Assembly (NCBI RefSeq): GCF_018127925.1
Contig: NZ_CP072347.1
Coordinates: forward strand, 932,501-996,500
Direction: 5' to 3'
Origin: Prevotella melaninogenica
GTDB taxonomy: Bacteria > Bacteroidota > Bacteroidia > Bacteroidales > Bacteroidaceae
DNA length: 64,000 nucleotides
The translations under genes were made by a program, and so were the position numbers. The notes beneath the pieces are model-generated. The model did not search any database. It was not told the origin of the DNA and saw only the letters and a program-made list of their open reading frames with translations. Within the stretch, counting starts at the first letter, position 1. Each line of letters begins with the position of its first letter. Positions 39,802 to 42,705 of the stretch are shown in pieces.

Positions 39802-40045
39802 TACCTTTGCGCCCGTGAAACAATTAGCAATAACATATCAGATGAATCCAGCACAGCAAAGAAATGTTTGTTTCTTTGCCTTTTTTAGTGCTTTATATTT
39901 GGTAGTTTCAGATATTTTGCTAACACACACACACACAGGCGCTACTAGCGTTTAATCATCCGTTTTTTCTTCCAGCCTACGCGCGCGCGAAGCGTGGCGT
40001 AACCCTTGTAAACAAAGGACCTCTAGGAGTTTCCTTTGTTCGCTT
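39802..40045 (+). promoter_or_regulatory. Structured leader or small RNA region upstream of the peptide-fimbrillin genes
   Basis: A -7 box TACCTTTG (39802-39809) starts a region with two terminator-like hairpins. The first is GCAAAGAAA (39856-39864) with TTTCTTTGC (39871-39879), then CTTTTTT. The second is AACAAAGGA (40011-40019) with TCCTTTGTT (40032-40040), then CGCTTTTT. Between them are a CA-dinucleotide tract (about 39922-39937) and a CG tract (about 39980-39990). A 37-codon frame (39842-39955) crosses the first hairpin and the CA tract. This could be an attenuator leader, or one or two small RNAs, ahead of the gene at 40165. No clear -33 box is visible. The rest of 39658-39801 is AT-rich with no supported feature. 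Confidence 0.5.
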
Positions 40046-40164: not shown

Positions 40165-40368
40165 ATGAGAGTAATTGAAAGAAAGATTTATCAAAGACCC
40201 CAGTGCAACATTATTTGCACGGAGACAGAAGCCCTATTAGTTAATGCTAGTGGTAATGCAGGAAAGATTAACCCAGGCACAACTGTGGGTGATGCAAAGC
40301 GTAATTTTTTTAGCAGTGAAGAGGAAGACCAGAATGGTACTTCTTGGAGTGACACTGAAACGGAGTAA
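40165..40368 (+). CDS. Small acidic-tailed peptide, 67 residues, upstream of fimbrillin-type lipoprotein
   Basis: From the ATG at 40165 the peptide begins MRVIERKIYQRPQCNIICTE and continues with small residues and Gly/Asn (LLVNASGNAGKINPGT). It ends with a Lys-Arg-Asn-Phe-Phe block followed by an acidic tail (SSEEEDQ ... DTETE). There is no signal peptide. The general plan, a short conserved head, a variable small-residue middle and an acidic end, resembles small proteins often found next to fimbrillin genes in Prevotella (recalled; function unknown). It ends 24 bases before the lipoprotein gene, so the two are probably co-expressed. An in-frame ATG at 40132 is possible but less well placed. 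Confidence 0.6.
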   Translation: MRVIERKIYQRPQCNIICTETEALLVNASGNAGKINPGTTVGDAKRNFFSSEEEDQNGTSWSDTETE

Positions 40369-40392: not shown

Positions 40393-41958
40393 ATGAATAA
40401 GTTTATGAAAAGAACAACTATAGGTTCAGTAATGCGAGGCATGTGTTATGGCTTCGCAGCTTTATTGTTTGCTGCCAGTTGTGCCAATGATGATATTGCA
40501 CAGGGAGAAAAACAGAAGAATAATGAGATCCCTGCTGAGGCAACCGTCTTTACTGGCACTTCTCAGCCAGATGCTATAACGCGTACAGCAATTCTCAACC
40601 ATACAAAAGGCGCAGGTGCTTCTGTAAATTGGAGCAGCACGGACAAGATATGGGTAAAAGACGATGGGGGAAACTGGCAGCAAAGTACAACGACGACTAT
40701 CCCTTCTGCAGCTAATCCATCATTTGCCAAGTTTGCTCTTTCAGGTACATATACGGGTGCTTCACACGGCATTCTATATACAAACAAGGCGGTTGTAGGA
40801 ACGCAAACACAGGTAGAGATTAAGGCTGCACAAACACAGTCTGCCCCAAACAACTTTGATCATGCAGGCGAATCAGGAGATTGCGGAATCGCCACAGCGA
40901 GCAAGGTTGGCAGTGATTATAGTTTTTCCCTTGACCACAAGGCAGCTTATCTTTGCTTTATCCCTCGCTCAAGCAATCCATACGTAAATCGTAGTAAGCT
41001 GATTAAGATTGAAATTATGAGTGACGACGATATAGCAGGGATTTACGACATAGCGGCTAACGGTACACTTACCCTTGCTTCTGGTGGTTCAAAAACGATT
41101 ACCGTAACCACAGGTTCAGGCTTTGCAATAGACAATTCTGCTGATGATATGAGCAAGAATGCTACCTATGCAGTCATTGCTCCCGGTACACATACTTTCC
41201 GCATTCGTTACTGGCTTCGCAATACAACTGATAATCCAAATGGAACAATAGAGGGAACAGTCTCAAAGATAGTTACGTTAAACTGTACGGCTGGTTCAAT
41301 TCATGATGTAACAGCTAATCTTGATCCTCATAACTATGACGGCAACCATTATTATATGTGGGATGCACAGGAACAATATTGGAAGGGGCATGAGTGGAAC
41401 TTAGGTGGTAGCCAGCCAACCATCCCTTATAATAATAGTAACGACTACCCTAAAAGTAACAGTGATCTAGGTTATTACCACGAGGGTAGCGGTGCATTCC
41501 AAGCTACCTTCTCTTGTACAAGTCTTCCCAACGTGAACGAGATGGTTTGGTATGCGGTAAAGGGTGATCCTTGTTGGGATAAAGACGAATTATGGACAAC
41601 TATGGGTCACTTATATAAAGGAGGTATGTGGTTTAAGAAGAAAGTATATATTAGTGGATTCAACGCTAACAGTGCTCCTGATGGAACCGATTGGCGAACA
41701 AGCGGTAACAGCAATAGCTGGGCTGCATCCCAGACACTTCCCCTTGCTACTGATGCAAATAAATACTTTTACATGCCCACTTTGGGGTATTATCAATGGG
41801 GACAGCTAAACTACCTTGGCATCTACGGCAGCTATTGGTCATCTAGTACTAATCCGTCGGTCAGCAACAGCGCATACTATCAGCGTGTTTATAGTGGTTT
41901 CGTCCTCGTGGATTATTTCAATCGCGACCTCGGATTTAGGGTACAGCCATTTGAGTGA
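40393..41958 (+). CDS. Fimbrillin-type lipoprotein with C-type-lectin-like variable tail; candidate DGR target
   Basis: A 521-residue surface lipoprotein. The signal ends LLFAASC with lipid Cys30. The N-terminal half has fimbrillin-family features: ATVFTGTSQPDAITRTAI, VNWSSTDKIWV and YDIAANGTLTLASG. The C-terminal part ends like the C-type-lectin fold of DGR target proteins: GSYWSSST, AYY, a central S-G pair and a final GFRVQPF. Of the 20 codons from 41875 to 41934, 17 end in C or T and include TTC, GTC, CTC, CGC and GAC, as if AAC/AAT codons had been randomised at their first two bases. A 10-bp hairpin follows the stop. A related non-variable lectin-fold protein is the alternative. Confidence 0.75.
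   Translation: MNKFMKRTTIGSVMRGMCYGFAALLFAASCANDDIAQGEKQKNNEIPAEATVFTGTSQPDAITRTAILNHTKGAGASVNWSSTDKIWVKDDGGNWQQSTTTTIPSAANPSFAKFALSGTYTGASHGILYTNKAVVGTQTQVEIKAAQTQSAPNNFDHAGESGDCGIATASKVGSDYSFSLDHKAAYLCFIPRSSNPYVNRSKLIKIEIMSDDDIAGIYDIAANGTLTLASGGSKTITVTTGSGFAIDNSADDMSKNATYAVIAPGTHTFRIRYWLRNTTDNPNGTIEGTVSKIVTLNCTAGSIHDVTANLDPHNYDGNHYYMWDAQEQYWKGHEWNLGGSQPTIPYNNSNDYPKSNSDLGYYHEGSGAFQATFSCTSLPNVNEMVWYAVKGDPCWDKDELWTTMGHLYKGGMWFKKKVYISGFNANSAPDGTDWRTSGNSNSWAASQTLPLATDANKYFYMPTLGYYQWGQLNYLGIYGSYWSSSTNPSVSNSAYYQRVYSGFVLVDYFNRDLGFRVQPFE
41872..41945 (+). other. Candidate DGR variable region
   Basis: Residues about 494-517. Aligned to the remembered DGR target tail (Asn-rich template translation), positions normally Asn are here Tyr, Arg, Tyr, Phe, Leu, Tyr, Phe, Asp and Leu, while the Ser-Gly and the closing R-x-x-G-F are kept. 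The third bases stay C or T. No adenine-rich template copy was seen elsewhere in the window. Confidence 0.5.
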
Positions 41959-41978
41959 TCCTTGCGATTGTCTTTTAC

Positions 41979-42023
41979 AGGTGTCGCCCTTTGAAAAGGC
42001 GACACCTTACGACCGTCGTAAGG
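41979..42023 (+). promoter_or_regulatory. Overlapping hairpins just after the candidate variable region
   Basis: AGGTGTCGCC (41979-41988) pairs with GGCGACACCT (41998-42007), 9-base loop containing GAAAA. An overlapping palindrome CCTTACGAC (42005-42013) pairs with GTCGTAAGG (42015-42023). DGR variable regions are typically followed by an initiation site and such a hairpin or cruciform. It may also serve as a weak terminator, but no T run follows. Confidence 0.55.
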
Positions 42024-42072: not shown

Positions 42073-42172
42073 AATTTCAAGGGTGTTTAATACCTATAAT
42101 CAAGGGTGTTAAACACCCTTGGTCAACAGTGTTAAACACCCTTAGACGACAGTGTTAAACACCCTTGAAATT
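42073..42172. repeat. Nested cluster of GTGTTAAACACCCTT palindromes
   Basis: TGTTAAACACCCTT occurs at 42107, 42130 and 42153, a period of exactly 23 bases. The first copy completes the perfect palindrome AAGGGTGTT-A-AACACCCTT (42102-42120). The whole cluster is enclosed by a 16-bp perfect inverted repeat (42073-42088 with 42157-42172). It lies 68 bases upstream of the HU-family gene and 49 bases after the hairpins of the fimbrillin gene. It may be an operator array or a structural repeat. Confidence 0.7.
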
Positions 42173-42240: not shown

Positions 42241-42705
42241 ATGGTAGAATTTGAAGTTAAATCAAAGAAACAAACAATCGGAAAGAAGAAGGGGCAGACG
42301 GTGTATTATGCCGTGGCTAAGAGTAATCAGCACCTGACACTAGACTCGCTGTGCGATATGATTATGGACGAGACTTCGCTCTCGCGCGGTGACGTGATGA
42401 ACACGCTTATCACACTGGGCAAGATGGCGTGCCGTTCGCTGAAGATGGGCGCAAGTATTGACCTCGGCGATCTTGGTTCGCTTCGTGTTTACTTCCCACC
42501 AAAGATGATGGACACGGAGAAAGAGGTTACGGCTGCCACGCTTAAGACACCTAAGATTGTCTTTACGCCTAAGGCTAAGATGCGCGAGGCTGTACGAGCC
42601 GCAGAAGTTTCGGTGGACAATCCAGCAAGGAGAAAGAGCCCCAGTCCTAGCCCTTCTCCAAAAGAGGGAGGTAAAGATAGCCCTGGTCCAGTGCTGGAAG
42701 GTTAA
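42241..42705 (+). CDS. HU-family DNA-binding protein with repeat-derived C-terminal tail
   Basis: A 154-residue HU-like protein of the Bacteroidetes type. The start VEFEVKSKKQTIGKKKGQTV, the helical LDSLCDMIMDETSLSRGDVM and the beta part DLGDLGSLRVYFPPKMM correspond to the HU/IHF fold. The last 25 residues (RRKSPSPSPSPKEGGKDSP and onward) are unlike the rest and are encoded by C-rich sequence resembling intergenic repeats of the genus, so the gene probably reads into such a repeat. It binds DNA non-specifically and may help nucleoid organisation. A hairpin terminator follows. Confidence 0.85.
   Translation: MVEFEVKSKKQTIGKKKGQTVYYAVAKSNQHLTLDSLCDMIMDETSLSRGDVMNTLITLGKMACRSLKMGASIDLGDLGSLRVYFPPKMMDTEKEVTAATLKTPKIVFTPKAKMREAVRAAEVSVDNPARRKSPSPSPSPKEGGKDSPGPVLEG

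What the first reader, a model, noticed from the sequence alone, without database searches (positions are those of the whole stretch)
41840..42023. Fimbrillin-type lipoprotein tail looks like a DGR variable region with its downstream hairpin
Seen: the C-terminus has YWSSS, AYY, a central S-G and a closing R-x-x-G-F-x-V-x-P-F. In the last 20 variable-looking codons, 17 end in C or T and include TTC, GTC, CTC, CGC and GAC, as expected if AAC/AAT template codons are mutated at adenines. A 10-bp hairpin with a GAAA-containing loop begins 21 bases after the stop. Known: Bacteroidetes DGRs diversify C-type-lectin-fold tails of fimbrillin-like lipoproteins and need such a hairpin near the initiation site. 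Inferred: this is a remote target, because no reverse transcriptase, accessory gene or template lies here.
Basis: partly seen in the sequence, partly recalled or inferred. Interest (0 to 1): 0.86.

Follow-up and report, generated by a model that had tools for sequence, protein, structure and literature searches.

The report
Hypervariable lipoprotein tail without its writer
This Prevotella surface-protein gene is one of 48 scattered copies whose ends carry the fingerprint of a known bacterial hypermutation system (a diversity-generating retroelement), yet neither the enzyme nor the template that would do the writing was found in its genome.

Summary
The tail of ORF 40393-41958 looks like a DGR variable region, and a 10-bp hairpin follows at 41979-42007. 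The gene is one of 48 paralogues on both contigs. At 25 tail codons the first two bases are nearly random while the third is usually C; 26 of 48 copies have at least 16 NNC codons there. Measured against a real DGR template from a congener with a homologous target, variation sits at template adenines (AUC 0.92). Silent sites inside the tail are homogenised (0.88 against 0.57 in the body; 325 of 325 pairs), while variable codons share no excess of blocks. That fits mutagenic retrohoming, not VR-VR conversion. But no DGR reverse transcriptase and no template was found in the genome (99.96% complete). Tails with nearly the same silent framework occur in four other congeners, again with no matching template found. 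So this is an orphaned, DGR-written repertoire; the window's own copy is a decayed member. Most copies also carry a dinucleotide repeat in the leader (47 of 48) and an HU-like gene downstream (45 of 48).

The parts
40393..41958 (+). Lipoprotein gene, 521 aa, lipobox-like ...LFAASC with Cys at residue 30; one of 48 paralogues in this genome
   Evidence: lipobox by eye
41773..41937 (+). DGR-type variable region (residues 461-515), decayed copy: 24 hypervariable codons between framework codons
   Evidence: end points inferred from the family alignment
41979..42007 (+). 10-bp hairpin, loop CTTTGAAAA, first base at +21 after the stop
40165..40368 (+). Small ORF (67 aa) directly upstream; ORFs of 66-74 aa stand in this place in the 8 copies inspected
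39842..39955 (+). Leader ORF (37 aa) read through the dinucleotide repeat
39923..39936 (+). (AC)7 dinucleotide repeat in the leader; 6-38 AC or 9-27 CT units in 47 of 48 copies
39802..39809 (+). TACCTTTG, like the -7 box of Bacteroidota promoters (consensus recalled); the two-box pattern matched in 38 of 48 copies but not in this one, and no chance control was run
42241..42705 (+). HU-HIG family DNA-binding protein (PF18291); an HU-like gene follows 45 of 48 copies within 2 kb on the same strand

Best explanation
The gene is one member of a genome-wide repertoire of 48 surface-lipoprotein cassettes. Many of their C-terminal tails were written by mutagenic retrohoming: an error-prone DGR reverse transcriptase copied one AAC-rich template, randomised its adenines, and the cDNA replaced the tail (about codon 461 to codon 515 in this copy) of many cassettes in trans. 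Shown by computation: adenine-site bias, NNC codons, silent homogenisation of the tail, independent variable codons, nearly the same framework in several species, a complete DGR with a homologous target in a congener, and no DGR RT or template found in this genome. Inferred: RT and template were present in this lineage until recently, or act from an element or strain not in the assembly, and are now lost or absent here, so the tails are an orphaned repertoire. The window's copy missed the last rewriting and has drifted. The likely function, variable ligand binding at the cell surface, is inferred.
For: 48 paralogues. 26 of 48 copies have at least 16 of 25 variable codons NNC; over all 48 copies Leu is CTC in 57% of variable sites against 15% upstream, and four-fold degenerate residues end in C in 49% against 21%. 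Against the G005 template, entropy at codon positions 1-2 is 1.45 bits at template A and 0.35 elsewhere in the 26 copies (AUC 0.924), 1.63 and 0.63 in all 48 (0.929), 1.70 and 0.79 in the other 22 (0.911). Silent-codon identity among the 26: VR 0.88, body 0.57, VR above body in 325 of 325 pairs; it rises from 0.62 to 0.91 between neighbouring 10-column windows, about where template-target homology also begins in G005. Runs of shared variable codons do not exceed shuffles (maximum 4 against a mean of 4.2; pairs with 4 or more: 4 against 2.6). G005 cassette: homologous target, bAvd-like gene, template, RT. Other species: silent differences from the G000 framework 0 of 35 (P. vespertina L120), 0 of 35 (P. 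veroralis L129), 1 of 33 (G146 L234), 3 of 34 (G170 L231).
Against: No RT and no template in G000, so present activity is not shown. No within-species strain comparison was possible. In the 26 copies some template-type adenines are nearly invariant (TAC 26 of 26 at column 610 and 23 of 26 at 652; TAT 25 of 26 at 633), which needs selection. Some body windows are also fairly homogeneous at silent sites (0.86, 0.79, 0.79) and the last VR window falls to 0.75. One pair shares 11 of 24 variable codons, at the upper edge of the shuffles (8-11). The window's own tail fits the framework weakly (19 of 102 mismatches; silent identity 0.57 against 0.48 in the body) and is not among the DNA matches of the template query, only among the protein matches. 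The structure model failed (mean pLDDT 36), so the C-type-lectin fold is untested.
Confidence: 0.82

Rival explanations
1. A DGR is resident in the living strain but missing from the assembly (plasmid, phage, or another part of the population), and still rewrites tails in trans.
For: The freshest tails have 1-2 framework mismatches of 102 to a consensus drawn from the same copies, so writing was recent relative to body divergence. Trans targets, and structural variants with intact DGR parts, are reported in Thiohalocapsa (PMC10907252, passages).
Against: The assembly is 99.96% complete in two contigs. No template-like match in 398 congener genomes (only the two best candidates of each were scored), in plasmids or phages, or for one exact 18-mer in viral contigs. 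Relatives with the same tails, two of them in one or two contigs, lack a matching RT too.
Confidence: 0.25
2. Tails were diversified in donor bacteria that own the DGR and reached this genome by recombination of short stretches or whole cassettes.
For: At a syntenic site (flanks 97% identical at protein level on both sides) G000 and G170 hold different coding contents (proteins 44% identical, flanking DNA 84-92%), so cassettes do get exchanged; three further site pairs show proteins 38-61% identical.
Against: Bodies next to near-identical frameworks are not near-identical (nearest G000 body 70-85% at protein level for the seven tails compared), and the homogeneity begins at a common place in the family, as retrohoming predicts.
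Confidence: 0.15
3. Gene conversion among the 48 paralogues shuffles the tails.
For: Many copies, conserved flanks.
Against: Variable codons share no more runs than column shuffles while silent framework sites are homogenised; conversion would copy both.
Confidence: 0.04
4. Ordinary diversifying selection on a ligand-binding tail, no special machinery.
For: Variable residues are rich in Y, S, N, G and D, as in many binding sites (recalled).
Against: It does not explain NNC codons, silent homogenisation in 325 of 325 pairs, or near-identical silent sites across species.
Confidence: 0.03

Closest known systems
Diversity-generating retroelement of Prevotella G005 (L116), found here
   Same: Cis target is a homologue over the whole length (32% identity); its template lies in register with the G000 tail codon for codon; bAvd-like gene and DGR RT present
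   Different: Resident RT and template; 28 of 105 framework bases and 12 of 28 silent codons differ from the G000 framework; six matches at E<=1e-5 in that genome, the template itself included
BPP-1 DGR (Mtd), the type system
   Same: AAC-rich template and adenine mutagenesis of a C-terminal tail (recalled; brt, TR and VR1 as annotated)
   Different: Phage, target beside its RT; here 48 paralogues and no RT found
Thiohalocapsa PB-PSB1 DGRs (PMC10907252, passages read)
   Same: Many targets, remote targets, incomplete loci, trans activity
   Different: 15 target proteins with 21 VRs and resident RTs; here 26 copies with a clear NNC signature and neither RT nor template found
DGRs with many VRs (PMC6642488, passages read)
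   Same: One template can feed a dozen to hundreds of VR copies, as that survey states
   Different: The worked example has 21 merged VRs inside one ORF and the survey starts from template and RT; here one VR per separate gene on two contigs, without either

Membership tests
Diversity-generating retroelement (as a complete system) | DGR-type reverse transcriptase | tested here: not met
   PF00078: 3 hits; the two classified are retron-like and Drt3a. DGR-RT profile: none at 1e-10 in G000, while 17 of 200 congeners have matches of 200 bits or more, three of them members of the profile; best in G000 33.5 bits, the Drt3a
Diversity-generating retroelement (as a complete system) | Template repeat | tested here: not met
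   Consensus template query: the 33 matches at E<=2.3e-5 all lie in family tails, the other 7 have E 0.29-3.5; 40 of 43 candidates were scored
Diversity-generating retroelement (as a complete system) | Accessory protein Avd | tested here: not met
   Three PF05635 hits amid genes that look housekeeping by eye; none over the bAvd cut-off (best 27.6 against 40). No genome-wide bAvd search was run
DGR-written variable region (target) | Variation at template adenines | tested here: met
   Independent template from G005: AUC 0.91-0.93. The template that wrote these tails is unseen
DGR-written variable region (target) | Silent homogenisation of the VR relative to the gene body | tested here: met
   met for the 26 NNC-rich copies, weak for the window's copy
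DGR-written variable region (target) | GC-rich initiation sequence and hairpin downstream | tested here: inconclusive
   Hairpin in this copy and in half of the family, often at a similar place, with different stems; the initiation sequence was not tested
DGR-written variable region (target) | C-type-lectin fold of the tail | tested here: inconclusive
   Model too poor; the G005 target hits Lcl_C weakly (E 0.012, 16.3 bits, cut-off 34.9); hhalign with the G003 DGR target tail: probability 92%, E 6.5e-7
DGR-written variable region (target) | Strain variation at these codons | not testable with these tools
   One genome per species is held; nearest records may be left out
Fimbrillin | Pfam or NCBIfam fimbrillin model | tested here: not met
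   0 of 14 members (13 of the 48 and the G005 target) match any Pfam or NCBIfam model at 0.01; 4k4k E 0.008 only
Phase-variable contingency locus | Simple repeat whose length changes expression | tested here: inconclusive
   Repeat in 47 of 48 copies with differing lengths; effect on expression and strain variation could not be tested

The most novel reading that the evidence does not exclude
A travelling or transient DGR: one template, found in none of the genomes searched, has written nearly the same framework into receptor-like cassettes of at least five Prevotella species, leaving genomes without the writer but with up to dozens of independent hypervariable surface lipoproteins, most behind a repeat-bearing leader of their own; that is, tail hypermutation combined with putative phase switching and cassette exchange.
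Probability: 0.35. Interest if true: 0.88.

Novelty: new variant of a known kind. Interest (0 to 1): 0.76.

Why it matters
Surveys of DGRs start from the template and reverse transcriptase and look nearby; one states that it would not detect remote targets (PMC8144416, passage). Here is a large target repertoire that such surveys cannot see, in a Prevotella. It makes testable whether DGRs act as visitors that leave a lasting, inherited library of binding tails, and whether these bacteria combine hypermutated tails with repeat-controlled expression. It also gives a way to find orphaned targets: NNC-codon tails with homogenised silent sites.

Tried and rejected
Active resident DGR: rejected for this assembly. 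Avd-like genes as remains of a DGR: three PF05635 proteins stand among genes that I read by eye as sdh, adk-obg and men-type, and score below the bAvd cut-off. VR-VR gene conversion: rejected. G003's own DGR as the writer of G003's family tails: its template has a different framework (WSAVPNNTNNG..., by eye). Mobile source: no match for the cassette in plasmids, for the template translation in phages, for the template DNA in either, or for one exact framework 18-mer in viral contigs; one viral contig has a 49%-identical template-like stretch, not pursued; the 80 viral DGR-RT loci kept from a capped scan were not examined. Structure prediction failed, so no fold search was run. The paper searches cover only open-licence PMC text, with 10 to 21 papers listed in four of them and one each in two; by titles and abstract starts none is about this family. 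Rows left out: of 33 family-gene rows found in relatives (L130 and L247 are one gene) 19 went into the framework comparison and 7 into the body comparison.

Full report
What is there. A 10-bp hairpin follows at 41979-42007. In this gene alone 21 of 24 variable codons end in C/T and 13 of 24 in C, against 0.60 and 0.20 in the body (p=0.003 and 0.0003): suggestive, not decisive.

The family. A search of the window's own genome (G000, 3.36 Mb, two contigs, 99.96% complete) gave 48 matches, the window gene included, 36-100% identical over most or all of the protein, on both contigs; I fetched all 48 with 2-kb flanks. Contig lengths of relatives equal those of Prevotella vespertina A2879 (G003) and P. 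veroralis DSM 19559 (G026), so the genus is Prevotella; G170 has the contig sizes of P. melaninogenica (recalled). With the tail query at E<=1e-5, 60 of 200 congeners had any match: G000 at least 31 (31 of 48 candidates scored), G003 11, G201 8, G005 6, G026 and G146 5 each; templates are counted where a genome has one. G000 is an outlier in copy number.

The tail is a DGR-type variable region. In the codon alignment of all 48, 25 tail columns have first and second bases of high entropy (over 1.3 bits each, mostly 1.5-1.95), interleaved with conserved framework. 26 of 48 copies have at least 16 of the 25 codons ending in C. Residues with free third bases show that it is not an amino-acid effect: over all 48 copies four-fold degenerate residues end in C in 49% of variable sites and 21% upstream; Leu is CTC in 57% against 15%. 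As an independent template I used that of congener G005, which has a complete DGR: a target 32% identical to the window protein over its whole length, a bAvd-like gene (PF22296, E 1.3e-9, 39 bits, just under its cut-off of 40), an AAC-rich template, and an RT with the LTSQL motif shared by BPP-1 and absent from the two G000 RTs aligned. At codon positions 1-2 entropy is 1.45 bits at template adenines and 0.35 elsewhere in the 26 copies (AUC 0.924); 1.63 and 0.63 in all 48 (0.929); 1.70 and 0.79 in the other 22 (0.911). Against simple expectation, some template-type adenines are almost invariant (TAC at columns 610 and 652, TAT at 633), presumably by selection.

The mechanism of writing. Among the 26 copies, identity of silent codons is 0.57 in the body and 0.88 in the tail, and the tail exceeds the body in 325 of 325 pairs. 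In windows of ten columns it rises from 0.62 to 0.91 at about the place where template-target homology also begins in G005 (by eye); the tail windows run from 0.75 to 0.95 up to the last few codons, and three body windows are also high (0.86, 0.79, 0.79). Runs of shared variable codons do not exceed column shuffles; one pair shares 11 of 24 codons, at the edge of the shuffled range 8-11. A donor that homogenises silent sites while each copy keeps its own variable codons is what mutagenic retrohoming predicts and VR-VR conversion does not. Framework mismatches to the consensus, which is drawn from the same 26 copies, are 1-12 of 102 in 25 copies, 14-25 in 12 and 34-59 (of 99 or 102) in 11. The window gene has 19; its silent identity to the 26 is 0.57 in the tail and 0.48 in the body, and its tail is not among the DNA matches of the template query. 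It is a decayed copy.

No writer was found in this genome. RVT_1 gives three hits: a retron-like RT, a Drt3a and its neighbour; I classified the first two and infer that the third is Drt3b. A DGR-RT profile built from four Bacteroidota RTs and BPP-1 finds none in G000 at 1e-10; 63 of 200 congeners match at that level, 17 of them with 200 bits or more, three of which (G003, G005, G024; 638-656 bits) are in the profile. At E<=0.001 the best in G000 is the Drt3a at 33.5 bits. A consensus template query gave 33 matches at E<=2.3e-5, all in family tails, and seven at E 0.29-3.5; 40 of 43 candidates were scored. The Avd-like proteins are nearer the 23S-IVP type.

Nearly the same framework in other species. 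Tails in P. vespertina (L120: 0 of 35 silent differences from the G000 framework), P. veroralis (L129: 0 of 35), G146 (L234: 1 of 33) and G170 (L231: 3 of 34) share it, while body silent identity to the 26 copies averages 0.54-0.61 for the seven tails compared. These are the closest; others in the same genomes are further off (L121 6 of 30, L130 5 of 28, L123 8 of 30, L232 13 of 26). G146, G026, G215 and G070 have no RVT_1 match, G170 one (not classified) and G232 two; in none of these six does the DGR-RT profile exceed 26.6 bits. G003 has a DGR RT, but its template has another framework. In 398 congener genomes, with the two best candidates of each scored, the highest identity to the template query was 87% over 141 of 165 bases, in a family tail. 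Phages and plasmids gave none, nor did viral contigs for one exact 18-mer.

The cassette. Homology between copies extends about 600-850 bp upstream and 700-1000 bp downstream of the gene in many copies; in the window's copy most downstream matches end within about 65 bp and one reaches 680. 47 of 48 copies have an (AC) or (CT) repeat upstream, and 38 of 48 a promoter-like two-box match (no chance control). In 29 of the 36 AC-type copies a leader ORF reads through the repeat: 37-56 aa in 27, 148 and 168 aa in L047 and L040; in seven the rule found none. An HU-like gene follows in 45 of 48. At a site where G000 (L046) and G170 (L231) share both flanks, the coding part differs (proteins 44% identical) although flanking DNA is 84-92% identical; three further site pairs, one matched on one flank only, have proteins 38-61% identical. 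So cassette contents seem to be exchanged. Whether the repeat switches expression was not tested.

Verdict. It works like a DGR target and carries the marks of having been one; it is not filed as a DGR, because RT and template were sought here and not found. Best reading: an orphaned or transiently served DGR target repertoire. 48 cassettes, 26 with a clear signature, compare with 15 target proteins in Thiohalocapsa PB-PSB1 (PMC10907252, passages); a survey speaks of DGRs with a dozen to hundreds of VR copies and shows one with 21 merged VRs in a single ORF (PMC6642488, passages). My paper searches listed no report on this family, in an incomplete library.

Noticed in passing
39923-39936 and upstream of 47 of 48 copies: Dinucleotide repeat (AC)6-38 or (CT)9-27 in the leader; leader ORF length depends on repeat number in AC-type copies. 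Looks like a phase-variation device, untested.
   Followed up: partly
42241-42705: An HU-like DNA-binding gene follows 45 of 48 cassettes within 2 kb on the same strand; role unknown.
   Followed up: partly
L046 (G000) and L231 (G170): Same genomic site in two species, different lipoprotein content between conserved flanks.
   Followed up: partly
G000:C1:1176338, C1:1163477, C2:1689054, C2:79670: The leader sequence also occurs at sites outside the 48 genes (where 40 of 96 candidates were scored); what follows there was not read.
   Followed up: no
42080-42170: Array of palindromic AAGGGTGTTAAACACCCTT-like repeats between the gene and the HU gene (by eye).
   Followed up: no
L002/L003 (G000:C1:524-526 kb) and L001 (C2:1524 kb): A Drt3a gene with a second RT gene beside it, and a retron-like RT, likely phage defence.
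   Followed up: partly
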